IMG/VR virus record: IMGVR_UViG_3300021075_000015
Span: 1 to 24,299 of that record
Length of the DNA: 24,299 nt
From: a virus
Strand: one strand, 5' to 3'
A program made the position numbers and the translations under genes. Each line of letters starts with the position of its first letter. Position 1 is the first letter of the stretch. Below are positions 11,890 through 24,299 of the stretch, in pieces. The notes beneath the pieces are model-generated. The model was not told where the DNA came from. It searched no databases and saw only the letters and a program-made list of their open reading frames with translations.

Positions 11890-13206
11890 GTGCGAACAAT
11901 AACCAGGATTGAACCAAAAACTTTTATAATCCCAACAAAATTAAGAGTCGCTGCTTACTGTAGAGTTTCGCTTGAAAAGGAAAGTATGTTGCACTCGCTT
12001 TCAGCTCAAGTTAGTTACTACAGCGAGTTCATCCAAAACCATAGAGGCTGGCAGTATGTCGGGGTTTATGCCGACGAAGCCATATCAGGCACATCAAATA
12101 TTCGCCCCGAGTTCAACAGGCTACTTGTGGATTGCCGAGAGGGAAAGATTGATATGATTATTACAAAATCAATTTCTCGGTTCGCTAGGAACACTCTCAC
12201 CATGCTTGAGGTGGTCAGGGAATTAAAAAGTATCAACGTGGATGTGTTCTTTGAAAAAGAAAATATTCACTCAATCAGTGGGGATGGCGAGCTAATGCTT
12301 ACCATCCTCTCTTCATTCGCCCAGGAAGAAAGTCTCTCGGTAAGCGAGAACTGCAAGTGGCGAATTAGAAATCAGTTCAAAACCGGTGTACCTTATCATT
12401 TTTCCATTATCGGTTATGAGCTAAAAAACAATAAGCTTGAAATCGTCCCCCGAGAAGCAGAGGTTATAAGAATGATTTTTAATGATTTTCTATCAGGCAT
12501 GGGCAAGATTGCTATCATTAAAAAACTAAACGCAAAGGGTCTTATGACAAGAAACAATAAACTGTGGCAAGAGAAGGCTGTTGACAGGATTTTGCGTAAT
12601 GAAAAATATGCAGGAGATCTGCTTTTGCAAAAGTTCTATAGTTCAAATCATTTGGAAAAACAAAAACGTGTAAATGTTGGTCAACTTCCTTCGTATTACA
12701 TAACAGACAGCCACGAACCGATTATTGATAGGGATACATTTGAGAGAGTACAGTTGGAACTAGAAAAGCGAGCACGGATTTATAACGCCGGAGCAGTTAC
12801 TGGAATGCCACATTCCTTTGCAGGTAAAATCGTTTGTGGTGAATGCGGGGACAATTATCGAAGAAGAATAACCCACGCAGGCGAGAAATATGAAAAAGCA
12901 GTGTGGATTTGCACAACTAAGAACAGACTTGGAAAAGAAGCCTGCGGCTCAAAACAAATCCCTGAGGATATTATTTCAAAAACGACTGCTGAGGTTTTAG
13001 GAATAAAGGACTTTGATGAGGATTTGTTTAGTCAAAATATTAAGATGATTAAAGTAACAGACACTAACCATTTAGTGTTTGTTTTTTTAAATGGGCTCGA
13101 ATGCATAAAGCTATGGCAGAATAATTCGTGCCGAAATAGTTGGAGTGAAGAGAAAAGGCAAAAACAAAGGGAGATGATTACATGCAGGCTACAGGAGCAA
13201 AAATAA
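11890..13206 (+). CDS. Large serine recombinase without coiled-coil domain (first of pair)
   Basis: This 438-residue protein starts at GTG 11890 behind a GATAGGAGC binding site. The N-terminal catalytic resolvase domain has Ser27 in 'YCRVSLEKES' and the arginine-rich 'SISRFARNT' motif. The recombinase domain follows (residues 165-270), then a zinc beta ribbon with CGECG near residue 317 and later Cys in 'WICTTK' and 'ACGSK'. The coiled-coil region that normally follows in large serine integrases is missing: the terminal strand ('VTDTNHLVFVFLNGLECIKLW') comes almost directly after the ribbon. The gene overlaps the second recombinase by 25 bases, so they are surely co-translated. It may act with the second protein or as an accessory factor. 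Confidence 0.88.
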   Translation: MRTITRIEPKTFIIPTKLRVAAYCRVSLEKESMLHSLSAQVSYYSEFIQNHRGWQYVGVYADEAISGTSNIRPEFNRLLVDCREGKIDMIITKSISRFARNTLTMLEVVRELKSINVDVFFEKENIHSISGDGELMLTILSSFAQEESLSVSENCKWRIRNQFKTGVPYHFSIIGYELKNNKLEIVPREAEVIRMIFNDFLSGMGKIAIIKKLNAKGLMTRNNKLWQEKAVDRILRNEKYAGDLLLQKFYSSNHLEKQKRVNVGQLPSYYITDSHEPIIDRDTFERVQLELEKRARIYNAGAVTGMPHSFAGKIVCGECGDNYRRRITHAGEKYEKAVWICTTKNRLGKEACGSKQIPEDIISKTTAEVLGIKDFDEDLFSQNIKMIKVTDTNHLVFVFLNGLECIKLWQNNSCRNSWSEEKRQKQREMITCRLQEQK

Positions 13207-14774
13207 CAGTAAGACCAGCAACAATTGGGAGGTACTCAACTATACCAACTAATCTGGCTTACAAAAAGCGAGTCGCGGCTTATGCCAGGGTATCAACAGA
13301 TACTGAAGAACAGCAATCAAGCTACGATGCTCAGGTCAAGCACTACTCAAAGTTTATAAAGGAGAATGTTGCTTGGGAGTTTGTAGAGGTGTATGCCGAC
13401 GAGGGTATTTCTGCAACAAGTACCAAGAAGCGAGACGGCTTTAATAGAATGATTTCCGATGCACTTGAGGGTAAAATCGACCTTATTGTTACCAAGTCAG
13501 TAAGCAGATTCGCCAGGAACACCGTCGACACGCTTACCACGGTACGAAAGCTTAAGGAATGCGGTGTGGAAGTGTACTTTGAGAAAGAAAACATTTATAC
13601 CCTCGACAGCAAAGGCGAACTTCTAATCACAATCATGTCATCTCTCGCCCAAGAGGAGTCGCGTTCCATTTCAGAGAATGTCACTTGGGGCCAGAGAAAG
13701 AGATTTGCTGACGGAAAGGTGAGCCTTCCCTACAAACACTTTCTTGGCTTTGAGAAAGGCGAGGGCGACATTCCGAAAATAGTTGAAAGTGAGGCAAAGG
13801 TAGTCAGGCTAATTTATAAGCTCTTTTTAGAAGGACAAACGCCAACGGCATTAGCTAGGTATTTAACTGAAAATGGGATATTAACACCCTCTGGTAAGAA
13901 AGTATGGAAGTCAAATGTGATAAATAGCATCCTGAAAAACGAAAAATACAAAGGCGACGCAATGCTTCAAAAGTCGTTTACGGTTGATTTTCTGACTAAG
14001 AAAAAGAAAATAAACGAGGGTGAGATTCCACAATACTACGTTGAAAATTCTCACCCAGCAATCGTAAGCCCTGAGGTTTATAACCTGGCCCAGTATGAAT
14101 TTAAAAAACGAAAGGCCAATAAGGGTTACAAGACCTGCGGCAGCTGCTTTTCAGGTAAGATAATTTGTGGGGAATGTGGCAGTATATTTGGCAGAAAAGT
14201 TTGGCACTCAAACAGTAAATACAAGCGTGCCATTTGGCAGTGTAACAGCAAGTTCAAAACAAAAAAGAAATGCGGGACTCCGCACATTTACGAGGATTCA
14301 ATAAAGGCCGCGTTTGTTGAAGTCTTTAACTGCTTGATTGGAAACAAGGCACTACTTCTCGCGGATTACGCTGAAATAATTATGGTGATTACAGACACGA
14401 CTGCACTTGAGAAAGAAAATTCAAAACTTCAGACCGAGATTGATGTGGTGCTTGAACTGCTTAGAAAGAGTGTGGACGAAAACGCCAGAACGGCAATTAA
14501 CCAATCGGATTATGAAAAACGTCATAATGCACTACTTGATAAGTTCGAAACTACAAAAGATAAAAAGGCTGAGGTTGAAGAAAAACTTAAGGAGCGTCAG
14601 GCTAAGGGTGAAGAGATAAGGGTGTTCATGAAAAAGCTTGAGGAGTCAGAAAATTTACTCACAACTTTTGATGATGAGCTTTGGAATGCAACGGTGGTGA
14701 GGGTTGTGGTTGGAAACGAAAACACGGCATGGTTTGAGTTCAAGGATGGTCAGGAAGTTGAGTGGAAGATTTGA
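13182..14774 (+). CDS. Large serine recombinase / prophage integrase (second of pair)
   Basis: This 530-residue protein carries all parts of large serine integrases. The catalytic domain has Ser38 in 'YARVSTDTEEQ' and the 'SVSRFARNT' motif; the recombinase domain spans about 180-290, with a zinc beta ribbon with CGECG and 'WQCNSKFKTKKKCG'. A long coiled coil runs from about 410 to 500 (ALEKENSKLQTEIDVVLELL and on), and a short strand-rich end contains 'VVRVVVGNENTAWFEF'. Such enzymes join attP and attB in one direction unless a directionality factor is present. It lies at the last position before a terminator, where prophage integrases adjacent to an attachment site are usually found. This is the more probable integrase of the two. 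Confidence 0.92.
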   Translation: MQATGAKITVRPATIGRYSTIPTNLAYKKRVAAYARVSTDTEEQQSSYDAQVKHYSKFIKENVAWEFVEVYADEGISATSTKKRDGFNRMISDALEGKIDLIVTKSVSRFARNTVDTLTTVRKLKECGVEVYFEKENIYTLDSKGELLITIMSSLAQEESRSISENVTWGQRKRFADGKVSLPYKHFLGFEKGEGDIPKIVESEAKVVRLIYKLFLEGQTPTALARYLTENGILTPSGKKVWKSNVINSILKNEKYKGDAMLQKSFTVDFLTKKKKINEGEIPQYYVENSHPAIVSPEVYNLAQYEFKKRKANKGYKTCGSCFSGKIICGECGSIFGRKVWHSNSKYKRAIWQCNSKFKTKKKCGTPHIYEDSIKAAFVEVFNCLIGNKALLLADYAEIIMVITDTTALEKENSKLQTEIDVVLELLRKSVDENARTAINQSDYEKRHNALLDKFETTKDKKAEVEEKLKERQAKGEEIRVFMKKLEESENLLTTFDDELWNATVVRVVVGNENTAWFEFKDGQEVEWKI

Positions 14775-14793
14775 AGGGTTGAGAGTAGAGAAA

Positions 14794-14832
14794 CCGCTGA
14801 TTCAGAATTAATTCTGAGTTGGCGGCTTTTTT
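14794..14832 (+). terminator. Long Rho-independent terminator after the recombinases
   Basis: CCGCTGAT at 14794-14801 pairs with GTTGGCGG at 14818-14825 (three wobbles), enclosing a perfect inner inverted repeat TCAGAATT/AATTCTGA at 14802-14817, and is followed by CTTTTTTG. The pairing at the top of the stem leaves little or no loop on paper, so a few apical pairs must open. Confidence 0.8.
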
Positions 14833-14888
14833 GTTTTGTTGTCGGAATTTGGCGAAGACGGGTGGTATGATAAATTTGTTGAAAATTA

Positions 14889-14917
14889 TTGTAAATAATT
14901 ACGGGATGAAGTATTAT
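14889..14917 (+). promoter_or_regulatory. Candidate promoter for the secreted DUF6273 protein
   Basis: TTGTAA at 14889-14894 and TATTAT at 14912-14917 are separated by 17 bases, matching the sigma-A consensus at four and five positions. They lie 66 bases before the chosen start at 14984. The surrounding DNA is AT-rich, so chance matches are possible. Confidence 0.45.
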
Positions 14918-14983
14918 GGGTTCATAGAAAATTGTTAATTTTATGAAGGAATATTATCGGAATATTTGCGAGGTGAATTGCCT

Positions 14984-16210
14984 TTGAAGAAAAGATTAAT
15001 TAGTGTTTTGATGACGGTTGCTTTGATAGGATCACTGGCAACCATTTTGCCAGTAAGTAAGGTTGAAGCTGTTGCTAAAATAAAAATTGGCGACTACGTT
15101 AAAATGGGCAAGTACTATGGTGAATCAATACTATGGCGTTGTGTGAACATTGATGCAAATGGTCCGTTGATGTTGGCGGATAGAATTTTGACGTTTAAGT
15201 CTTTTGATGGTAGAGGCACGCACAAATACTCGGACGGCACTTTACAAGAAGATCCTGATCTATATCGCATATCTTATGGCTCAGACTTATGGCAAACCTC
15301 AAATATGCGATCGTGGCTGAATTCAACCGCTACTGCAGGGAATGTGAAATGGCCAGATGGTTGCCCACCAACAGAACATAATGTTTTGAAAGGATATTAT
15401 GCTTATGCGTCAGAAAAAGGTTTTTTAACAAACGGAAACTTTTCAGCAACCGAAAGAAATGCGTTGAAATCAGTAAATCAAAAGTCTTTGTTGAATTCAT
15501 TGGATGAATCCAAACTAAGTGTAGGAGGCTATCATTATCATATAAATAACAATGATATTTCAAATGTACTCACAAACTACGAATCGGCATATTACCATAA
15601 CATAAAAGATAAAATGTTTTTGCTTGATGTGAAACAAGTATTCAAGGTATACCAAAACAGAAAAACTCTTGGGACAAACTATTACATAGGGAAACCAACG
15701 CAAAAAGCAATTGATAATTACGAATATAATGACAGCGAACAAAACACATCTAGCAATTTGGATTATTGGTTAAGGTCTCCGTATGCGACTCCTGCATATG
15801 GTTTCAATGTTCGCATTGTCGGTTCCGGTGGAAATGTCTTTAATGCCAGAGCATACTCCAGTTGCGGCATACGCCCGGCTTTCTATTTAAATCTTCAAAC
15901 TGCAAACTTTAAATCTGGAAATGGCAGTAAAGGTTCACCATTTTCTTTAAACCCTAAAATTCATGTTAAATCAGTAAAACTCAACAAAACTACCATATCA
16001 ATCCTCAAAGGCAAAACATCAAAACTGATCCCAACAATCAACCCATCCAACGCCAGCAACAAGAAGGTTTCTTGGAAATCAAGCAACAAACTTGTAGCTA
16101 CAATAAATACAACTGGAACGGTTAAGGGAATCAGGAAGGGGATAGCTTATATAACGGTAGTCACGGTTGATGGGAAGAAGAGCGCGAAGTGTAAAGTGGT
16201 AGTGAAATAA
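14984..16210 (+). CDS. Secreted DUF6273 protein with C-terminal Big_2 domain
   Basis: TTG 14984 is chosen because AGGTGA lies 7 bases upstream and the product then begins with a classic signal peptide (MKKRLISVLMTVALIGSLATIL, cleavage near VEA). The mature part carries the DUF6273 pattern: 'GDYVKMGKYYGESILWRCV', 'SNMRSWLNSTATAGN', 'YWLRSPYATPAYGFNVRIVG' and 'GIRPAFYLNL'. This is a domain common in secreted and surface proteins of Clostridia with no known activity. Residues from about 325 form a bacterial Ig-like group 2 domain beginning 'IHVKSVKLNKT' and ending KCKVVVK. The 252 bases for this domain are nearly repeated at the end of the next gene. No anchor motif follows, so the protein is probably released or bound non-covalently. 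Confidence 0.82.
   Translation: MKKRLISVLMTVALIGSLATILPVSKVEAVAKIKIGDYVKMGKYYGESILWRCVNIDANGPLMLADRILTFKSFDGRGTHKYSDGTLQEDPDLYRISYGSDLWQTSNMRSWLNSTATAGNVKWPDGCPPTEHNVLKGYYAYASEKGFLTNGNFSATERNALKSVNQKSLLNSLDESKLSVGGYHYHINNNDISNVLTNYESAYYHNIKDKMFLLDVKQVFKVYQNRKTLGTNYYIGKPTQKAIDNYEYNDSEQNTSSNLDYWLRSPYATPAYGFNVRIVGSGGNVFNARAYSSCGIRPAFYLNLQTANFKSGNGSKGSPFSLNPKIHVKSVKLNKTTISILKGKTSKLIPTINPSNASNKKVSWKSSNKLVATINTTGTVKGIRKGIAYITVVTVDGKKSAKCKVVVK
15959..16210 (+). repeat. Big_2-coding direct repeat, copy 1
   Basis: This 252-base segment from the ATTCATGTTAAA of the Ig-like domain to the stop codon aligns without gaps to 17213-17464. Long stretches are identical, for example AACTGATCCCAACwATCAAC-type and GATGGGAAGAAGAGCGCGAA. 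Confidence 0.85.
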
Positions 16211-16225
16211 AACCAAAAGCTTATA

Positions 16226-17464
16226 ATGGAGGCGGAAAAAATCAAATTTAAAAAGCACATTATTTTGGTCTTAGTTATAGTTTTTCTCTTAACAACTTCT
16301 TCTTTTGGGAATTTGTCCTTAGGAGCGGAATCCAATCTACAGGTTCATATTATCGATGTTGGACAAGGTGACAGCATTTATTTATCACTCCCAAATGGCG
16401 AGAATATGCTTGTTGATGGAGGACCAGGAACAACGGCGACTCAGCTAATAACCTATTTGCAAAATCGGGGAGTCAATACGATTAACTATGTCGTGGCTAC
16501 ACACCCTCATGAGGATCATATTGGCGGTCTTGATAATGTTATTAGCACCTTTACTATAGGCAAGGTTTACATGCCGGCAGTTACATATACCACGCAAGCC
16601 TATACCAATTTAATAAATGCGATAAGTTCTAAGGGACTCACGAGTATAAAAACGTTTAAAGGTGTGGTGATATTGAATACGACCACAAACGCTAAAAACC
16701 TCTCTATCATGATGCTTTCCCCTATTTCAGCAACATATTCTGACATAAACAATTACTCGCCTTTTATAAGAGTTGTGTACGGAACAACAGAATTTTTACT
16801 TACTGGAGATGCGGGGACAATAGTTGAAACCGAGGTTAAAAACTCGGGACAAACAATGTATGCTGATGTTCTGAAAGTTGCTCATCATGGCTCGAACACA
16901 GCGACTGATGTAACTTTCCTAAACGATGTTAATCCTTCATCCGCAGCAATTTCAGTTGGTAGTGGTAATACAGACGGACATCCAACCGTGGCAACATTAG
17001 ATAAATTAAAAGCAAAGAATATAAATATTTTCAGAACGGATCTTCAAGGTTCGGTCGTTTATACAACAAATGGAACGGGGTATTTAGTTAATGTGGTGCC
17101 ATGGTTTGTTGGAATGATAATCCCAACTTCAGGACCTATTATTACAGCAGCGCCTACTTCAACTCCAACCCCAACTGCGACTGTTTCTCCAAAACCTACG
17201 CCTAAACCGGCAATTCATGTTAAGAGCGTAAAACTCAACAAAACTTCCCTATCAATCCTCAAAGGTAAAACTTTTAAACTGATCCCAACTATCAACCCAT
17301 CCAACTCCAGCAACAAGAAAGTGACATGGAAATCAAGCAATGTTAAAATAGCCTCAGTCAGCTCAACTGGAACGGTGAAGGGGATCAAGAAGGGGATAGC
17401 TTATATAATGGTAGTCACGGTTGATGGGAAGAAGAGCGCGAAGTGTAAGGTCGTTGTGAAGTAG
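16226..17464 (+). CDS. Secreted ComEC-like metallo-beta-lactamase-fold protein with Big_2 domain
   Basis: This 412-residue protein has a signal peptide (KKHIILVLVIVFLLTTSSFG), then a metallo-beta-lactamase domain of the ComEC/Rec2 C-terminal type: 'VHIIDVGQGDS', 'MLVDGGPG', the zinc motif THPHEDH at residues 92-98, 'LLTGDAG' and 'VAHHGSN'. A Pro/Thr linker (about 305-327) leads to a Big_2 domain. Stand-alone secreted relatives are presumed phosphodiesterases or nucleases acting outside the cell. The ATG at 16226 has no ribosome binding site, but GGAGGCGG at 16228-16235 ideally serves an in-frame ATC at 16241 that would start just before KFKKH, so the true start is uncertain. The gene follows the DUF6273 gene by 15 bases, probably one transcript. 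Confidence 0.82.
   Translation: MEAEKIKFKKHIILVLVIVFLLTTSSFGNLSLGAESNLQVHIIDVGQGDSIYLSLPNGENMLVDGGPGTTATQLITYLQNRGVNTINYVVATHPHEDHIGGLDNVISTFTIGKVYMPAVTYTTQAYTNLINAISSKGLTSIKTFKGVVILNTTTNAKNLSIMMLSPISATYSDINNYSPFIRVVYGTTEFLLTGDAGTIVETEVKNSGQTMYADVLKVAHHGSNTATDVTFLNDVNPSSAAISVGSGNTDGHPTVATLDKLKAKNINIFRTDLQGSVVYTTNGTGYLVNVVPWFVGMIIPTSGPIITAAPTSTPTPTATVSPKPTPKPAIHVKSVKLNKTSLSILKGKTFKLIPTINPSNSSNKKVTWKSSNVKIASVSSTGTVKGIKKGIAYIMVVTVDGKKSAKCKVVVK
17213..17464 (+). repeat. Big_2-coding direct repeat, copy 2
   Basis: This 252-base segment aligns without gaps to 15959-16210 and, like it, ends at the stop codon. The differences cluster in the middle (around the 'SSNVKIASVSS' codons), while both ends are nearly identical. 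Confidence 0.85.
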
Positions 17465-17483
17465 AGAATCACTCTATTTCAAG

Positions 17484-17927
17484 TTGTTAAAGCTTAGCAA
17501 TTATAATGAAAAGGGGAAGAATAATGGGTTTTCTAAAAGGAGTACTGATAAAATATCCGACTGGAATGCAAAGAGGGAAGCAGAAAGGCAGGAGAAAGAG
17601 CGTGCTAGACAGGAAAAACGGAAAAATGACGCTTTGAATTATATTGAGAATGAACGAGTCAAATGCGACTCAGAAATTGATTTTGAAACCATGAAATTTG
17701 TTGTTGATTCATTTACAGACAGGGAAAAAATAGCAGGTTATTCTAGCATCTCAATTGATGGAAACAGTGGCAATTTGGATAATGATGCAGCACAGTATGT
17801 AGATGCGAATATGTATCGTTTTTGCAAGGCAATCATCTCCCAGAATTTCATGCTAATGCGAAAAATCGACGCCTTATCAGAAAAAATCGAAGCGATTGAG
17901 AAGAGAGAAGAACAATCTGAGGAATAA
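17484..17927 (+). CDS. Charged unknown protein, probable frameshift near the start
   Basis: The open frame begins at TTG 17484 and gives 147 residues, but no ribosome binding site precedes that codon. An excellent AGGGGA site at 17512-17517 instead serves ATG 17524, which lies in another frame and opens MGFLKG before being lost after about 37 codons. One extra A in the AAAA run at 17535-17538 would join that start to the long frame and give MGFLKRSTDKISDWNAK. The body has a highly charged helix (REAERQEKERARQEKRK), a middle domain and a C-terminal coiled coil (LMRKIDALSEKIEAIEKREE). I recognise no function. The gene may be a recent frameshift, a sequencing error, or use the weak TTG. Confidence 0.6.
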   Translation: MLKLSNYNEKGKNNGFSKRSTDKISDWNAKREAERQEKERARQEKRKNDALNYIENERVKCDSEIDFETMKFVVDSFTDREKIAGYSSISIDGNSGNLDNDAAQYVDANMYRFCKAIISQNFMLMRKIDALSEKIEAIEKREEQSEE

Positions 17928-18008
17928 ATGAACAGAAAGAATGCATCAATGTTGGGTTATTTACAATTAAACAAAACAATCGTTTTGAATAAAGTGAGGT
18001 AAAGAAGT

Positions 18009-18392
18009 ATGGGGAAATATGGACAAACAGCTATACTAGCAATGAATTATATTATAGAAGGTTATGCAAAAACACCTAACGTGGCTTGGGATGAAGCATC
18101 AAAAGAAATCTTTGGAGAAGGTACCTCAAGTCAAACAAAAGGGTGCCCAAGAAATACATTTTTAGGTCTATGTGAGAACGGTAAAATTAAAGGGGTTAAC
18201 GCTGGAAGTTATACTTCTTCTAAAAAGAATAAGGATTATGCATTGAAAGCATGTGAATTTCTCAAAAACAACCCTAGTCTATCAAAAGAACCAAAGTTGC
18301 TTTGGGCAAAAATAATGCAAGGGCAGAAAATAAAGTATAATCAGCAGATGGATGTCGTATGTGCTTTATGGGATATGGGTCTGATTACTTGA
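18009..18392 (+). CDS. DUF6979-like conserved hypothetical protein
   Basis: This 127-residue protein starts at ATG behind GTGAGGTAAAG. It begins MGKYGQTAILAMNYIIEG and contains 'WDEASKEIFGEGTSSQTKGCPRNTFLGLC' (in parts EASKEIFG, SSQTKGCPR, TFLGLCENG) and ends 'QMDVVCALWDMGLIT'. I recall this combination from small bacterial proteins grouped as DUF6979, found scattered in many genomes, often near mobile DNA; the role is unknown. The K-G-C-P and SSKKNKDYALKA segments look conserved and could be functional, but no catalytic motif is evident. It stands alone between the charged protein and the lipoprotein-like gene, with its own binding site. Confidence 0.6.
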   Translation: MGKYGQTAILAMNYIIEGYAKTPNVAWDEASKEIFGEGTSSQTKGCPRNTFLGLCENGKIKGVNAGSYTSSKKNKDYALKACEFLKNNPSLSKEPKLLWAKIMQGQKIKYNQQMDVVCALWDMGLIT

Positions 18393-18445
18393 AATTGTCT
18401 TAAAAGGGTACTTGAGTTTTACAAATAAACAGGGAGGTACTTTTT

Positions 18446-19273
18446 ATGAATAGAGGCGGATTTTCTTGGAAGCGTCTACTTGAGATTTCAAAAGCAAAAA
18501 CTAGAATTTCTAGAATGACTGGAATTCCCTTTACTAAGGCTGGGCGGCAACGGAAAGCTGGTAAAATAATAACTGGTGACGGGTACCTGATTCCTTTTGT
18601 TTTAATTGTAATTTTGAGTTTTTTATTGTCTGCATGTGTTGGTAAAACCGATAGCCAAATACCAAACATTTCAAAGGATAATGCTTCTACACCTATGCCA
18701 ACGGGATTAGCACAGAAAATTGTTGAAACACCTAAAAAATCGTTTTCAAAAGCGATCATGGCAATAAAAGATTATAATGTTCGCGAAATGAACAAATATC
18801 TTAATTTTACTGGGGTTAAGAGTTTTAAAACCTCGAAAAAATCTATGATAGCTAGAGATAAAAAGCTAGTATATGCGTTTTTTTCAAAGTTGAGGTTTAA
18901 GGTCCTTTCGGTTTCTGAAAATAAAAACAATGCTAAAATTAAGGCGATAATTTCTAATCAAGAAATTAAAAATCTGGTAAAAATATATTTCACTAAAGCA
19001 TTTAAATTTTCATTTAAAAATGTCTTTGCAAAAAAGAGTTTAAGATTGAGTCAAAAGCAGGTGGAGAAGAAAATTAGAGATATTTTATTGGAGGTTGTTT
19101 CAGGTAAACACAATAAAAGAATATCAGCGACCGTTGAAGTTAAATTAATCAAATATAAAGACTACTGGAAAATAAAGGCGAACAATAAACTGGCGGACGC
19201 TTTAACTGGAGGAGGAGTGAGTTATTTTGAAAAACTAACAAAAATATTTAGTAATTGGGGTAAAGCAAAATAG
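18446..19273 (+). CDS. Lipoprotein-like membrane protein with unusual N-terminal basic domain
   Basis: This 275-residue protein starts at ATG 18446 behind AGGGAGGTAC. Residues 1-42 are a strongly basic soluble segment (MNRGGFSWKRLLEISKAKTR, then TKAGRQRKAGK) that I recall as the start of small unnamed Firmicutes proteins. Residues 47-63 are a hydrophobic helix ending in a perfect lipobox (LLSAC, Cys64). The rest is Lys-rich with helices and strands and no motif I can name; it resembles the extracytoplasmic part of small lipoproteins with a 'DYWKIKANNKLADAL' strand near the end. A normal lipoprotein would start near residue 45, so this looks like a fusion of two proteins. Otherwise it is a type II membrane protein with a cytoplasmic basic head. 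Confidence 0.65.
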   Translation: MNRGGFSWKRLLEISKAKTRISRMTGIPFTKAGRQRKAGKIITGDGYLIPFVLIVILSFLLSACVGKTDSQIPNISKDNASTPMPTGLAQKIVETPKKSFSKAIMAIKDYNVREMNKYLNFTGVKSFKTSKKSMIARDKKLVYAFFSKLRFKVLSVSENKNNAKIKAIISNQEIKNLVKIYFTKAFKFSFKNVFAKKSLRLSQKQVEKKIRDILLEVVSGKHNKRISATVEVKLIKYKDYWKIKANNKLADALTGGGVSYFEKLTKIFSNWGKAK

Positions 19274-19351
19274 CTTCAATTACTCAAAATACTGGTTTGG
19301 GTACAAACTTTATTTGAAGAAAAAATGAATTTGAAAGGATAGGTGTTTATT

Positions 19352-20050
19352 ATGGCAGGGTACGCAAAAACAAGTTTGATAAGTACATTAGGAATTGCTA
19401 TCAATGATATTTCAAACCTTTATAAGGAGAAATTCATTAACTATCGAGGAAAAACAATTTCGCAACCAAGAGAACAATATTCAGAGGTAATTTCAGGATT
19501 CCTTTTGAATAACCTTCAAGAATTCAAGAAAATAAAGAGTATTACAAGGGAGAAGTGTTATTTTACAAAAACTCACGATGGTAAAATCAAAAACCCAAAC
19601 TCGAATCGAACTGAAGAAAAAATCGCACTTTCAATGTCTGGAAAGACGTATCAATACATTGGAAAGATTGTTGACTATCAGATTCCGCTGAAAAATAAAA
19701 AAGATGATACCGGATTAGGCAAAATTGACCTGCTTTCATATATAGATGATAAATTAATAATCCTAGAATTAAAAGTTGAAGATAGTAAGGAGACTCTTCT
19801 AAGGTGCGTTCTTGAAACTTATACTTATTGGAAAACTGTTGACCAGTTAAAACTACTTAGGGATTTTAGTTCTTTGGCGCCAGAAGTAAAAAATGTTGAA
19901 AAGGCAGTTTTAGTTTTCAAGAACAGTTTTCAGCACGAAGAATATAAAAACACGAATTCAAAAACTCGTGAATTAATGACAAAATTAGATGTTGGGATTT
20001 ATTTAATTGAACATATAAATGAAAATAGATTTATTATCACTCTTCCATGA
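19352..20050 (+). CDS. PD-(D/E)XK nuclease-like protein
   Basis: The ATG at 19352 is preferred to GTG 19343 because AAAGGATAGG lies upstream at nuclease-gene spacing. The product has 232 residues. A PD-(D/E)XK core is visible: Asp126 in 'GKIDLLSYI', then Glu139 and Lys141 in 'LIILELKVED', preceded by a helix with Glu (RTEEKIALS) and followed by the helix 'LLRCVLETYTYWK'. These residues bind the metal and cut nucleic acid in this superfamily, although many members act in RNA- or DNA-linked defence or repair. There is no recognition domain, so the substrate cannot be guessed. It lies 65 bases before a coupled HTH and beta-CASP pair. Confidence 0.7.
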   Translation: MAGYAKTSLISTLGIAINDISNLYKEKFINYRGKTISQPREQYSEVISGFLLNNLQEFKKIKSITREKCYFTKTHDGKIKNPNSNRTEEKIALSMSGKTYQYIGKIVDYQIPLKNKKDDTGLGKIDLLSYIDDKLIILELKVEDSKETLLRCVLETYTYWKTVDQLKLLRDFSSLAPEVKNVEKAVLVFKNSFQHEEYKNTNSKTRELMTKLDVGIYLIEHINENRFIITLP

Positions 20051-20087
20051 AAATTTTTTAAACTGCCATCCCCATGTCGTGCTCGTG

Positions 20088-20096
20088 TGATATATT
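20088..20096 (+). promoter_or_regulatory. Extended -10 promoter candidate for the HTH/beta-CASP pair
   Basis: TGA followed by TATATT at 20091-20096 forms an extended -10 motif (TGnTATATT), 20 bases before the ATG at 20116. No good -35 box is seen at 16-18 bases upstream. The short leader leaves just room for the GAGGTGAT binding site. Confidence 0.4.
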
Positions 20097-20115
20097 GTTA
20101 TTGAGGTGATTTCAA

Positions 20116-20850
20116 ATGAATTCTCAAACAACGGGAATAGTGTATGATTATTGTAAGTACATTTTAACTTTTGGACTTTCAAGTGTTCAGTTGGAAAGTG
20201 TAAGGAAGAAGCTCGGTTCGCTTAGCATAAAAGTTGGAACTCAAAGTGAGAAAATAATTGTTCGCAGTTGCTATCAAATGACTGACATTTTAGCATATCC
20301 AGGATTCATGATAATAGCTAACTTGGAACAATTGTCGGAAGCTGAAAAGGTTGATTTGTTTGAATTTTGGGCTGAATGCGAAGAACCACTTTCAAAAGAG
20401 TTAAAAAAGTTATATGGGGATGTTAGCGATAAGTCGCAATTGATATACCTTATTGACGAAAATGTAAATATACCGCAAAAGTTGAAACGTGTATATCACA
20501 AACCAAAACTACTTGAAAACCTCCAAACTTTAAGACTTGATGTTTTGTCCGAGATAAAGGACAACGAAGGCAATGGAAAATCAAGCGAAACGTCAATTAG
20601 GATAAGCAGGGTGTTAAAAATTTATAAGGCACTGAAAGAAGGCGAGATATTTAGAATCGATGATTATTATTCGGGTTCAGAAGATATGGTTAGTACTCGC
20701 ACATTACTTCGGGATATTCAAATAATCAATGATGTCGAATACGGAGACGTAAAGTACGATCGCAATCAACGGGGCTATATTCTGCAACCGCATAGCACTT
20801 CTTTGATAGCTGCTTTAGTAAAAAAATTCAATAAAGAGGGCACAATGTAA
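20116..20850 (+). CDS. Protein with C-terminal WYL-type winged HTH domain
   Basis: This 244-residue protein starts at ATG behind GAGGTGAT. Residues 155-225 form a winged helix-turn-helix like the N-terminal domain of WYL regulators: 'ISRVLKIYKALKEGEIFRIDDYY', 'STRTLLRDIQIIND', then the wing 'VKYDRNQRGYIL' (recognition helix around TRTLLRDIQ). Here the domain is at the C-terminus and there is no WYL domain. The N-terminal 150 residues have helices and strands I do not recognise. The stop and the next start share a base (TAATG), so translation is coupled to the beta-CASP gene. It may be a DNA-binding regulator of that operon or a targeting subunit for the nuclease. Confidence 0.65.
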   Translation: MNSQTTGIVYDYCKYILTFGLSSVQLESVRKKLGSLSIKVGTQSEKIIVRSCYQMTDILAYPGFMIIANLEQLSEAEKVDLFEFWAECEEPLSKELKKLYGDVSDKSQLIYLIDENVNIPQKLKRVYHKPKLLENLQTLRLDVLSEIKDNEGNGKSSETSIRISRVLKIYKALKEGEIFRIDDYYSGSEDMVSTRTLLRDIQIINDVEYGDVKYDRNQRGYILQPHSTSLIAALVKKFNKEGTM

Positions 20851-22046
20851 TGAAAATAATTATTCATAAAGGCTCTCATCAAATTGGTGGTAGTGTAACG
20901 GAGATATCTACCGACAAAGCAAGAATTATTATTGATATGGGTGCAGATTTGCCGAATTCAAATAGTTCAAGCGGCAAACCGTTTGGAATTGATGGCGTTA
21001 CATTCGGGGAAAGAAAATGCAATGCAGTGCTTTTAACACATTATCATGGTGACCATTTAGGATTGACAGACGAATTGCTGCCAGAAATACCTGTCTATAT
21101 TGGTCGTGTTGCTAAAGAAATCTTCCTATTGTTAAGTGAGCGAATGAATTATTATGATAAAGACAAACCAAGAAAATTAGATAGAATTAAGAATTTTAAT
21201 ACATTCAAAGCTGAGGACAAATTAGAATTCGGCGATATAATCGTAACGCCTTTCTTCATTGATCATTCAGCTTATGATGCTTATATGTTTTTGATTGAAG
21301 CTGAAGGCAAAAAAATCCTGCATACCGGAGATTTCAGAACACACGGATTTAGAGGAAAAGGACTGATGAAAACGCTCAGACGCTATGTAGGTCAGGTAGA
21401 CATTTTAATTACCGAAGGCACGTTGCTAAGTCGCGGCAAAGATGAAATTGTTTCAGAAGCACAGCTTCAACGACAGGTTAGAAATTTAATGGTTAAAAAT
21501 AAAAACGTCTTTATACTTTGTTCCTCCACCAATATTGATCGGATATTTTCATTTATACATGCTAATCCGCATGGAAGACCATTTGTTTGTGACCAATATC
21601 AAAAGTCGGTGTTGGATCTTGTAAAAAAAGATGGTTCGGTTCACAGCAGCTTCTATGATTATAATTTTGTTTATGATTATGGTCATAACTTAGATAAATT
21701 AATGGATGAAAAAGGTTTTTGTATGCTGATCCGTACCAGCGATTATTTCAAACCATTTTTAAAAAAGTACAAAAACGATTGTGTAATTATATATTCTATG
21801 TGGCACGGTTATCTTAGCGGAAAAGCAAAAAATGATAGCTTGGTGGAATTCCTAGCACCATATAAATATATTATTAAACACACAAGTGGACATGCTACCA
21901 GTAATGCTATTAAGGATGTTTGCAATACAGTTAATCCTCAAATAGCCGTTATACCTATTCATACTGAGGATCCAAACGCTTTGCAGAATATTTGTACAGG
22001 TCATAATGTGAAAGTATTAGCAGATGGGGAAGTGTTTTCATTTTGA
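20850..22046 (+). CDS. Beta-CASP metallo-beta-lactamase nuclease (RNase J-like)
   Basis: This 398-residue protein has a complete set of catalytic residues: HYHGDH at 64-69, His139 in 'IDHSAYDA', His158 and Asp161 in 'HTGDFR', and the beta-CASP motifs A (Glu189 in 'ITEGTLL'), B (His344 and His348 in 'HTSGHA') and C (His371 in 'IPIHTE'). Family enzymes are zinc-dependent ribonucleases or nucleases such as RNase J. Housekeeping RNase J is about 550 residues with a C-terminal oligomerisation domain, which is absent here, so this is a separate short accessory lineage. It is translationally coupled to the HTH protein. A role in defence or stress-related RNA cleavage is inference. Confidence 0.85.
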   Translation: MKIIIHKGSHQIGGSVTEISTDKARIIIDMGADLPNSNSSSGKPFGIDGVTFGERKCNAVLLTHYHGDHLGLTDELLPEIPVYIGRVAKEIFLLLSERMNYYDKDKPRKLDRIKNFNTFKAEDKLEFGDIIVTPFFIDHSAYDAYMFLIEAEGKKILHTGDFRTHGFRGKGLMKTLRRYVGQVDILITEGTLLSRGKDEIVSEAQLQRQVRNLMVKNKNVFILCSSTNIDRIFSFIHANPHGRPFVCDQYQKSVLDLVKKDGSVHSSFYDYNFVYDYGHNLDKLMDEKGFCMLIRTSDYFKPFLKKYKNDCVIIYSMWHGYLSGKAKNDSLVEFLAPYKYIIKHTSGHATSNAIKDVCNTVNPQIAVIPIHTEDPNALQNICTGHNVKVLADGEVFSF

Positions 22047-22116
22047 TTGGAAAAAAGTTAAGATTAATATAAATGGTTAGCAATATAAGAAATATTTCTA
22101 GAAGGAGAATTCAAAA

Positions 22117-22716
22117 ATGAAAAACGAAAAAATTGAAAATGCATTAGTTAAGATGAAAAATCAATACGAAAAAATATTTAAAGTTATGCGCCCACGAATA
22201 GGTTCAACTGGGTATACCGAGCGTAATCAAACATGTAATTTTGTAACAGCCTTTTTACAAGGAAATGCTGAAGCTGTAGCATGGTATGAGTTCCCGTTAA
22301 CAGATAAAAGGTCTCACATTGATGCAGTTATTTTTGACAAAAGTGATAATACACTTTATTTAGTAGAGGCAAAAAGGTATAATAATGATAAAAAAGTTAA
22401 TTATATTATAGAAGATTTTAAAAGATGCTATAAGTCGCAACGTCAGATAGCAGAAAATTGTAGTTTTGATGCTATCAATCATACTGAATGCAATTATTAT
22501 GTAGTAATTTTGGCGGATCTATGGAAAGATTGCATAAAATATTGGACTAGTTGGGATGAGAAAAATGGCGATTTGTATGATGGAATTATGAAAGAAAGTA
22601 ATTTTAAAGCGGAATTCCGCAGTCAAGAATTCGAAAACCCCAAGGATTTTAGAGATGAATATCTCGCGGGGTATAGACTTTTGTGTATTTACGCTGAAAG
22701 TACACAATTAAAGTAG
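22117..22716 (+). CDS. Second PD-(D/E)XK nuclease-like protein
   Basis: This 199-residue protein starts behind an AGAAGGAGAA binding site, 70 bases after the beta-CASP gene. Motif residues are Glu35 in 'TERNQTCNF', Asp69 in 'SHIDAVIF' and Glu84 plus Lys86 in 'LYLVEAKRY', in the order and spacing of a PD-(D/E)XK nuclease core (strand-turn-strand with Asp, then ExK). The remaining part is helical with a Trp-rich middle (ADLWKDCIKYWTSWDE). No partner or recognition domain is visible. It is unrelated in detail to the nuclease-like protein at 19352, so the pair is not a recent duplication. Substrate is unknown. Confidence 0.7.
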   Translation: MKNEKIENALVKMKNQYEKIFKVMRPRIGSTGYTERNQTCNFVTAFLQGNAEAVAWYEFPLTDKRSHIDAVIFDKSDNTLYLVEAKRYNNDKKVNYIIEDFKRCYKSQRQIAENCSFDAINHTECNYYVVILADLWKDCIKYWTSWDEKNGDLYDGIMKESNFKAEFRSQEFENPKDFRDEYLAGYRLLCIYAESTQLK

Positions 22717-22747
22717 AAAATGAATTGAAAAACAAGGAGGTGTTTTT

Positions 22748-23296
22748 ATGGATAAAAAAGAATTTGTTTATGACAATGAGATGGAAAAGCCTGCAGGTTT
22801 TTGGGAGGAGCTTATCCAACGCAAACCTAGTGATGAGGAAGTTTCACAACTAGTCCTAGAAGCAGAAGAACATCTAAGAGAGAATCCAACTGCTGTTTTT
22901 CACTGTGTGTTCACTCTTGTGCTTCAAACTAAATGCCAATTTGCTAATCCAAATAGCGAAATATGGAAAGAAACCTTTAATCGAATTGAAGCATTATGTG
23001 AAAAGTATCACGATGATGAAAAGTTAATTTACATTATGAGGGGCGCATTTTCATATAAATGCCACGATACAGATTTTGCTTTAGAACGGTTTGACACATT
23101 ACTTAATGAACCTTTTTATACTTATAGAATGGCGGAGGCAATTGCAGGAGGGCTTGCCTGTCTTTCGGATCAGGTATCACCTGCTACAGACATGGAAAAA
23201 ATCACAGCATATCTGGAGATGTTGAATAAGGAATACATTGAAAATGAGTATATAGCTTCTATGTATGCGCAAGTGCTTTCAAAGCCTATACAATAG
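22748..23296 (+). CDS. Helical unknown protein, possibly TPR-like
   Basis: This 182-residue acidic protein begins at ATG behind a strong AAGGAGG site at 22734-22740. It is almost wholly helical in pattern (DEEVSQLVLEAEEHLRENP, IWKETFNRIEALCEKYHDDE, LIYIMRGAFSYKCHDTDFALERFDTLL). The middle helices resemble TPR-like pairs (YIMRGAFSYKCHDTDFALERF), suggesting a protein-protein adaptor, but I do not recognise the family. It has no signal peptide and no catalytic motif. It follows the second nuclease-like gene by 31 bases and precedes an HTH gene, so it may be transcribed with both. Confidence 0.65.
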   Translation: MDKKEFVYDNEMEKPAGFWEELIQRKPSDEEVSQLVLEAEEHLRENPTAVFHCVFTLVLQTKCQFANPNSEIWKETFNRIEALCEKYHDDEKLIYIMRGAFSYKCHDTDFALERFDTLLNEPFYTYRMAEAIAGGLACLSDQVSPATDMEKITAYLEMLNKEYIENEYIASMYAQVLSKPIQ

Positions 23297-23352
23297 GGCT
23301 TTCAAGTGTATTAAGCAAAATACTAAGTTTGAGGATGAAAGGGACAAGCAAA

Positions 23353-23667
23353 ATGGATGGAATACTTGAGCAGATTTTATCAGAATTAAAAGAGATAAAG
23401 CAGCTTTTACTTAAAAACAAAGGGTTAGATTCTGGCATTAATAATAGTGATTCTTACCGTGAGACTATGCAGTTTAAAGAAGCATCAGAATATTTAGGAA
23501 TTACGAAGAGCAGAATCAGAACGCTTGCGATAAATGGTGAAATCAAACATTTTAAAGTAGGGAATAGATACTTATTTAAGCGGAAGGCTTTAGATGAGTG
23601 GCTGGAGGAAGTTCAAGAAGCTTCTATAGTAAAAGAAACGGGGAAAATTAGAAGAATAAAAGAGTAA
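23353..23667 (+). CDS. Excisionase-type HTH (HTH_17) DNA-binding protein
   Basis: ATG 23353 is chosen because AAAGGGA lies upstream; it gives 104 residues. The N-terminus is a coiled coil (GILEQILSELKEIKQLLL). Residues 40-84 match the helix_turn_helix type 17 / excisionase pattern: 'FKEASEYLGITKSRIRTLAINGEIKHFKVGNRYLFKRKALDEWL' in parts EASEYLGI, RIRTLAINGEI, FKVGNRYLF, LDEWL. Such proteins bind DNA either as phage excisionases or as small regulators in mobile DNA. No integrase is adjacent, so excisionase function is not supported, only the domain type. Confidence 0.8.
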   Translation: MDGILEQILSELKEIKQLLLKNKGLDSGINNSDSYRETMQFKEASEYLGITKSRIRTLAINGEIKHFKVGNRYLFKRKALDEWLEEVQEASIVKETGKIRRIKE

Positions 23668-23697
23668 GGATTATTAGAAAACTAGGGAGAGTTTGAC

Positions 23698-24186
23698 ATG
23701 GAGACTTTGATATTAATTATAATTGTTCTACTCATTTTATTGTTAGTATATATTATAATGAAACTTTTCCGAACTAGCGAAAAGGGAAGTACTGCTTATT
23801 CAGCACCTGAGATTTCGGAAAAAATTTGTGAAAGTGCAACTGATATTAGTCAAACCCCAGCTGTTATTAATCAAACCCCAACTGTTATTAATCAAACCCC
23901 AACAGAGAGCGCCCCAATTATTGAAACAGCAGTAGTATTTGAAAAAAATATGGCTCAAGTTTATGAAAATGAAAAACACTATTTGCTTTACAAAAATAGG
24001 TTATTTGATGTAAATAAAACGTTGGAATTTCTTAATAGAAAAGCAAATATTGATTTTATAGTAAAGGAATATGATGAAATTAACGATAAGGGCGAATCAT
24101 TGAAGAAATATTTATTAGATGCAGAGACTCTAATTTCATCAATTATGGTTAGAAAACGTTATCCGTTAATTTTGCTATGGACTTGA
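23698..24186 (+). CDS. N-terminally membrane-anchored protein, C-terminus probably disrupted
   Basis: This 162-residue frame starts at ATG behind TAGGGAGAG. Residues 3-22 are a transmembrane helix (LILIIIVLLILLLVYIIMKL), followed by a Pro/Thr-rich linker with three VINQTP-type units and then a soluble charged domain (YENEKHYLLYKNRLFDVNK and on). The frame ends with RKRYPLILLWT, just where sequence of an IS3 transposase takes over in another frame, so the natural C-terminus is probably lost by the insertion. The function is unknown. The anchored-domain layout would suit a membrane-bound receptor or scaffold. Confidence 0.6.
   Translation: METLILIIIVLLILLLVYIIMKLFRTSEKGSTAYSAPEISEKICESATDISQTPAVINQTPTVINQTPTESAPIIETAVVFEKNMAQVYENEKHYLLYKNRLFDVNKTLEFLNRKANIDFIVKEYDEINDKGESLKKYLLDAETLISSIMVRKRYPLILLWT
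23839..23901 (+). repeat. Three tandem 21-base units
   Basis: Units at 23839-23859, 23860-23880 and 23881-23901 share the form xCTGwTATTArTCAAACCCCA; the last two differ only at their first base. They encode (D/V)I(S/N)QTP(A/T) repeats in the linker of the anchored protein and could vary in number. Confidence 0.85.
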
Positions 24187-24299
24187 TCCAATTGCCGCAG
24201 AAATCAAGGAGAAAATGGGACACGGAAAACGCAGAGTAAAGCGTTTGATGAGAGCTAATGGGATACATTCAAAAAGAAAGATCAAGTGGAAAGCAACAA
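24170..24299 (+). mobile_element. IS3-family transposase fragment (OrfB N-terminal part), continues past window
   Basis: From about 24170 a frame different from the preceding gene reads FCYGLDPIAAEIKEKMGHGK, then RRVKRLMRANGIHSKRKIKWKAT, which is the conserved HTH_21 segment (xRVxRLMRxNGIxxKRKxK) at the N-terminal end of IS3-family OrfB transposases. No start codon or OrfA is seen upstream: a stop codon (TAA 24167-24169) precedes directly. This is therefore a 5'-truncated transposase remnant or the edge of an insertion; the rest lies outside the window. Confidence 0.7.

What the first reader, a model, noticed from the sequence alone, without database searches (positions are those of the whole stretch)
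19352..22716. Candidate undescribed nuclease system: PD-(D/E)XK, winged HTH, beta-CASP nuclease, PD-(D/E)XK
Four consecutive genes encode two different predicted PD-(D/E)XK proteins around a translationally coupled pair of a winged-HTH protein and a complete, short RNase J-like beta-CASP enzyme. All catalytic residues are present. The cluster lies in an accessory island between a prophage end and an IS3 remnant, as is common for defence loci. I do not match this combination to a named defence system.
Basis: partly seen in the sequence, partly recalled or inferred. Interest (0 to 1): 0.8.

Follow-up and report, generated by a model that had tools for sequence, protein, structure and literature searches.

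The report
Paired RNA- and DNA-type nuclease module
Bacteria of several phyla carry a mobile pair of nuclease genes, one of the RNA-cutting RNase J type and one of the restriction-enzyme type, in which the second is repeatedly swapped while the first stays; no such pair could be found in the catalogues searched, and it may be an unrecognised defence against mobile DNA, though that is untested.

Summary
In detail: four consecutive genes at 19352-22716 encode a PD-(D/E)XK protein, a winged-HTH protein, a complete short beta-CASP enzyme (HTH and beta-CASP overlap, TAATG) and a second PD-(D/E)XK protein. The four-gene grouping is only partly right. In 41 of 56 non-redundant relatives the beta-CASP gene lies within two genes of, overlaps, or (once) is fused to a PD-(D/E)XK nuclease. 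Genome-wide searches from the nuclease side recover the pairing in 3 of 5 (window-type nuclease) and 9 of 14 (Bacteroidales-type) cases outside the seed genomes. The partner belongs to several unlike subfamilies and is swapped between near-identical beta-CASPs, DNA similarity stopping at the beta-CASP gene's ends. The window's first three genes recur together in two other Clostridia loci. The fourth has no relative near the beta-CASP loci examined; its one relative found stands among cassette-like genes of a Vibrio plasmid. The beta-CASP is accessory (12 of 348 genomes of a Lachnospiraceae family sample) and fails the RNase J and Cas14 cut-offs. Defence is plausible but unproven: a PADLOC scan of its neighbourhoods is no richer than controls. 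Best reading: an unnamed two-nuclease module with an interchangeable PD-(D/E)XK part, here with an HTH regulator.

The parts
19352..20050 (+). PD-(D/E)XK nuclease-like protein 1 (232 aa), core partner
   Evidence: E88, D126, E139, K141 invariant in 9 relatives; AF2 model pLDDT 79.7, pTM 0.80; structural matches to EndoMS, XisH, Can2, FokI, Shedu and other PD-(D/E)XK folds, best Z 8.8; homologues next to or two genes from a beta-CASP gene in L002, L005, L050, L053, L085, L101, L103
20116..20850 (+). winged-HTH protein (244 aa) with an N-terminal domain of possible receiver-like alternating alpha/beta order; likely regulator
   Evidence: E 1.2e-9 to a profile of HTH proteins from other loci built without it; relatives within three genes of the beta-CASP in L005, L039, L042, L103; AF2 model too weak to use (pLDDT 47)
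20850..22046 (+). short beta-CASP metallo-beta-lactamase nuclease (398 aa), core of the module
   Evidence: Pfam Lactamase_B_2, Lactamase_B and RMMBL; catalytic residues conserved in 39 rows; NCBIfam RNase J cut-offs not reached
22117..22716 (+). second PD-(D/E)XK-like protein (199 aa); adjacent, probably not part of the core module
   Evidence: D69, E84, K86 shared with a Vibrio plasmid protein; no relative in 348 genomes of the family of G001 nor beside the first 51 beta-CASP loci

Best explanation
The locus carries a mobile two-nuclease module. A short RNase J-like beta-CASP enzyme is the constant core; a PD-(D/E)XK nuclease, taken from one of several unlike subfamilies, is its interchangeable partner; in this lineage a winged-HTH protein probably controls the operon. 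Shown: the conserved pairing, overlapping reading frames, one natural fusion, partner exchange between near-identical cores, conserved catalytic residues and a sporadic distribution including plasmids. Inferred: the two proteins act in one complex; the PD-(D/E)XK part cuts or recognises the target (most likely DNA) while the beta-CASP part degrades RNA (its motif C is the histidine of the RNA type); and the job is to destroy foreign nucleic acid or stop an infected cell. The second PD-(D/E)XK gene downstream is a separate neighbour.
For: 41 of 56 non-redundant beta-CASP loci have a PD-(D/E)XK gene within two genes or fused (34 adjacent, 6 at two genes, 1 fused), against 5 of 454 genes three or more places away and none in 180 kb of control DNA; 24 partner genes overlap the beta-CASP frame. 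An 800-aa natural fusion, beta-CASP 1-417 and PD-(D/E)XK about 431-779, E 3.5e-28 with a profile built without it. Searches from the nuclease side: window-type nuclease, seed genome G001 left out, beta-CASP beside it (one gene between in G513/G627) in 3 of 5 lineages (G299, G552, G513/G627 yes; G213, G388 no); Bacteroidales-type, seed genome left out, 9 of 14 genomes. Partner exchange: at least 11 changes of class on the beta-CASP tree; L004/L008 (85% identical beta-CASPs) and L042/L044 (88%) carry different nuclease classes and their DNA similarity spans just the beta-CASP gene. HTH + beta-CASP + same nuclease class recur in L005 and L103. Accessory: 12 of 348 genomes; plasmids of Butyrivibrio, Prevotella and Alphaproteobacteria.
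Against: No activity, complex or protection has been measured. PADLOC families are no denser around beta-CASP genes than in controls. 15 of 56 loci have no recognised nuclease within two genes (five of them have one 6-7 genes away). The nuclease classes were modelled on genes found beside beta-CASP, so the neighbour count is partly circular; the reciprocal searches are less so, but they are small. The window's gene order (nuclease, HTH, beta-CASP) is not seen elsewhere. Cross-class homology of the nucleases is firm only among the Bacteroidales, alphaproteobacterial and some Firmicutes forms; the rest share just the D...E-x-K core.
Confidence: 0.52

Rival explanations
1. The module is not a defence but an accessory nucleic-acid processing unit of mobile elements: it serves replication, RNA turnover or maintenance of plasmids and integrative elements, and pairs with whatever PD-(D/E)XK nuclease the element carries.
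For: On Butyrivibrio plasmid pCY186 it lies with replication initiation, dnaX, DnaE-like and FtsH-like AAA genes, and L085 has the related AAA and a DnaA-like gene; DNA polymerase III alpha domains are the commonest neighbour family (5 of 102); no excess of PADLOC families.
Against: Most loci, including the window and the Bacteroidales ones, lack these replication genes; the replication genes differ between loci; partner exchange at gene boundaries is unusual for a maintenance function.
Confidence: 0.22
2. A toxin-antitoxin-like or abortive unit: the HTH represses the operon and the nucleases kill or arrest the cell when the HTH is removed or induced.
For: HTH stop overlaps the beta-CASP start; HTH or WYL-type regulators lie near the beta-CASP in many Clostridia loci.
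Against: The HTH is absent from the Bacteroidales and proteobacterial loci seen; no small conserved antidote gene was recognised; two active-site-complete nucleases are more than a toxin-antitoxin pair needs.
Confidence: 0.14
3. All four genes, second PD-(D/E)XK included, form one four-component system.
For: Same strand, gaps of about 70 bases or less.
Against: No relative of the fourth gene beside any beta-CASP in the first 51 loci, none in 348 genomes, none in phage records; its one plasmid relative is in a row of unlinked single genes.
Confidence: 0.08

Closest known systems
RNase J / short beta-CASP RNases (RNase J1, TTHA0252, EF2904 structure 2az4)
   Same: Metallo-beta-lactamase plus beta-CASP fold, motifs 1-4 and A-C with the RNA-type histidine C; best solved relatives 2az4 (E 6.5e-14) and RNase J structures
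   Different: 398 aa without the RNase J C-terminal part; NCBIfam scores 68.9 of 400 and 49.9 of 820; sporadic; linked to a PD-(D/E)XK gene
Type VII CRISPR Cas14
   Same: A beta-CASP RNase used against mobile elements (PMC12669027)
   Different: Score 28.2 of 800; Cas14 carries a Cas10-like C-terminal domain, for which 398 aa leave no room; no CRISPR-like repeat array; no Cas7/Cas5 recognised in the locus
MBL nuclease-protease pairs of Hachiman, AVAST, Lamassu and DRT (PMC12799240)
   Same: An MBL-fold nuclease gene beside a partner gene, sometimes with the PD-(D/E)XK protein HamA, repeatedly moved between systems
   Different: [quoted passage not shown] none of these is recognised here
Viperin-associated NERD and HamA nucleases
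   Same: PD-(D/E)XK cores with weak profile hits: NERD 3.9e-5 to protein 1, HamA 0.018 to protein 2
   Different: Partial or sub-threshold hits; no viperin or HamB-like helicase recognised in the locus

Membership tests
beta-CASP nuclease superfamily | Metallo-beta-lactamase motifs 1-4 plus beta-CASP motifs A, B, C | tested here: met
   D29, H64/H66/D68/H69, H139, D161, E189, H348 invariant and H371 nearly invariant in 39 rows; Pfam RMMBL above cut-off
Ribonuclease J | Reaches the curated RNase J cut-offs | tested here: not met
   TIGR00649 68.9 of 400 bits; RNase_J1 49.9 of 820 bits
Type VII CRISPR-Cas (Cas14) | Cas14 profile score | tested here: not met
   NF045584 28.2 of 800 bits
Type VII CRISPR-Cas (Cas14) | CRISPR array nearby | tested here: not met
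   No repeat array in 14700-24299; no Rfam match in the window
PD-(D/E)XK nuclease superfamily (protein 1) | Core fold and E...D...E-x-K active site | tested here: met
   Invariant residues; model and structural matches to many PD-(D/E)XK nucleases, best Z 8.8; Foldseek alone gave no PDB hit below E 0.001
PD-(D/E)XK nuclease superfamily (protein 2) | Core fold | not tested
   Only the D69, E84, K86 motif, shared with one relative
MBL nuclease-protease defence pairs (Hachiman/AVAST) | Trypsin-like protease or caspase partner | tested here: not met
   None among the profile hits of the locus's proteins
Anti-phage defence system | Located in defence islands | tested here: inconclusive
   54 PADLOC families in 102 neighbour proteins against 58 in 96 control proteins; a crude measure, and the controls happen to hold a Wadjet-like locus
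Anti-phage defence system | Protects against phage or plasmid | not testable with these tools
   Needs an experiment

The most novel reading that the evidence does not exclude
A new class of bacterial nuclease system: an RNase J-like beta-CASP core that works in one complex with an exchangeable PD-(D/E)XK subunit, the exchange setting what is attacked, present in Bacteroidota, Firmicutes, Alphaproteobacteria and a few other groups and acting against phages or plasmids.
Probability: 0.45. Interest if true: 0.85.

Novelty: categorically new. Interest (0 to 1): 0.72.

Why it matters
A pair of nucleases of RNA type and DNA type that travel together, fuse, and exchange one partner while keeping the other suggests a nuclease machine that no catalogue used here lists. 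If it defends against mobile DNA it adds a beta-CASP enzyme as a core outside CRISPR type VII, and a natural set of partner-swapped loci in which target choice could be mapped directly.

Tried and rejected
Viral contigs: no relative of the beta-CASP, nuclease 1 or nuclease 2 in IMG/VR with single-sequence queries, which find only close relatives. Phage records: only distant hits, at most 28% identity. HTH model: too weak to search with. Foldseek with the nuclease model: no PDB hit at E 0.001 or better, so the fold statement rests on the structural re-alignment and the residues; no single nuclease family is picked out by it. Direct BLAST of the window HTH against the L103 HTH: not significant; the profile test is. 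Defence-island enrichment: tested with a control and not found. Literature searches for beta-CASP with defence terms: only CRISPR type VII and unrelated papers; bioRxiv is not held as such and most subscription journals are missing. Fourth gene as system member: judged unlikely. RNase J and Cas14 membership: rejected by score.

Full report
What is there. The window is an IMG/VR record of 24,299 bases. Phage tail and amidase genes and two large serine recombinases fill it to 14774, then come accessory genes, and a fragment like an IS3 HTH_21 domain ends it (the last match is weak). The beta-CASP protein passes the Pfam cut-offs for Lactamase_B_2, Lactamase_B and RMMBL. It fails the RNase J and Cas14 cut-offs of NCBIfam by a wide margin. 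Its nearest solved relatives are EF2904 (2az4, a 'hypothetical protein') and RNase J.

The beta-CASP family. A scan of genome contigs found 51 relatives in Clostridia, Bacteroidales and a few other groups. Aligned with plasmid relatives, 39 rows keep D29, H64/H66/D68/H69, H139, D161, E189 and H348 without exception and H371 nearly so. From established knowledge of the superfamily these are the metal-binding and beta-CASP residues, and histidine at motif C is the RNA-type signature. The gene is accessory: 12 of 348 genomes in a family sample around L005 (Lachnospiraceae) carry it, one copy each.

The partner. Beside most beta-CASP genes lies a gene with a D...E-x-K core. Profiles sort these into a large class (Bacteroidales, Alphaproteobacteria, some Firmicutes), a second class (L007, L039 and others), the class of the window's first nuclease, and a small fourth one. 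In 56 non-redundant loci the partner is adjacent in 34, two genes away in 6 and fused in 1; 24 partner genes overlap the beta-CASP frame. Five of 454 genes three or more places away match these classes, and none in 180 kb of control DNA from genomes of the same searches. The profiles were seeded on neighbours, so this count is partly circular. Gene starts were taken mechanically, so the larger overlaps may be inflated.

Reciprocal tests. Searching genomes with the window-type nuclease profile, and leaving out the seed genome G001, beta-CASP was beside it, or one gene away in G513/G627, in three of five lineages: G299, G552 and the near-identical pair G513/G627, but not G213 or G388, the latter with a frameshifted copy next to proteins that look, by eye, like type III CRISPR subunits. 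Searching 301 genomes of the family of G003 with the Bacteroidales-type profile gave 15 genomes with a hit; leaving out the seed, 9 of 14 have the beta-CASP immediately downstream; in the others it is absent from the region examined. An 800-residue protein in an uncultured Clostridia genome is a natural fusion of the two, E 3.5e-28 for the nuclease part with a profile that did not include it.

Partner exchange. On a tree of 56 beta-CASP proteins the partner class changes at least 11 times. Beta-CASPs that are 85% (L004, L008) and 88% (L042, L044) identical carry different nuclease classes, and the DNA similarity covers the beta-CASP gene and stops at its ends. The nuclease classes are homologous beyond doubt only within the large class (E 4.7e-11). 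The window class meets the others only at the active-site core.

The window's nuclease and HTH. The first nuclease has invariant E88, D126, E139 and K141 in nine relatives, a good model, and structural alignments with EndoMS, XisH, Can2, FokI, McrC and Shedu, best Z 8.8 over 105 residues. The HTH matches a profile of HTH proteins from other loci at E 1.2e-9 although that profile was built without it. HTH, beta-CASP and this nuclease class recur together in L005 and L103, in other orders. The HTH family is not confined to such loci: two of three genomes found with it in the family sample have no beta-CASP beside it. The N-terminal half of the HTH protein alternates strands and helices, which may be a receiver-like fold, but the model is poor.

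The fourth gene. Its D69, E84 and K86 are shared with a Vibrio plasmid protein that sits in a row of unrelated single genes resembling an integron cassette array. No relative was found near the first 51 beta-CASP loci, in 348 genomes of the family of G001 (no positive control in that set), or in phage records. It is probably a separate gene.

What it does. Overlapping frames, a fusion and long-term pairing argue for a complex. A constant core with a swapped nuclease, on plasmids and beside integrases and prophages, fits a conflict system. But neighbours of beta-CASP genes match PADLOC models no more often than control genes do (54 families in 102 proteins, 58 in 96), and some Butyrivibrio loci sit with replication genes. 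So defence is a reasoned guess, not a result.

Novelty. No model in Pfam, NCBIfam or PADLOC and no paper found joins beta-CASP with PD-(D/E)XK. The nearest published idea is the MBL nuclease-protease pair of Hachiman and AVAST (PMC12799240), which uses an MBL enzyme resembling DNA-uptake nucleases, and a protease. The rating 'categorically new' means that every known system considered failed a membership test; the protein folds themselves are known, the function is unproven, and most subscription journals could not be checked.

Noticed in passing
window 16226-17464: A ComEC-type metallo-beta-lactamase protein with a C-terminal Big_2 domain, just after a DUF6273/Big_2 protein at 14966-16210; the two share about 88% identical DNA at their 3' ends (15958-16209 and 17212-17463).
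   Followed up: partly
window 11890-14774: Two large serine recombinases in tandem with overlapping frames (13182-13206) at the presumed prophage end.
   Followed up: partly
window 22748-23296: A 182-aa protein of unknown family follows the second PD-(D/E)XK gene by 31 bases.
   Followed up: no
window 18009-18392: A clear DUF6979 protein (E 9e-49) in the accessory region.
   Followed up: no
L054, L056; also L123, L124: A metallophosphoesterase gene overlaps the end of the beta-CASP gene on a Prevotella and a Cereibacter plasmid; a similar-looking one lies near beta-CASP-less Bacteroidales-type nuclease genes. Possible third component.
   Followed up: partly
L026-L031, L051: A Lachnospiraceae form in which beta-CASP ends a longer operon of unknown genes with a protein of two HTH-like segments upstream; in several the PD-(D/E)XK gene is 6-7 genes away.
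   Followed up: partly
L002, L034, L037, L053, L085: DnaE/PolC-like polymerase III alpha, dnaX-like, DnaA-like or FtsH-like AAA genes lie near beta-CASP in several Clostridia loci and on plasmid pCY186.
   Followed up: partly
L104: A frameshifted window-type PD-(D/E)XK gene lies near genes whose proteins look, by eye, like type III CRISPR RAMP subunits.
   Followed up: no
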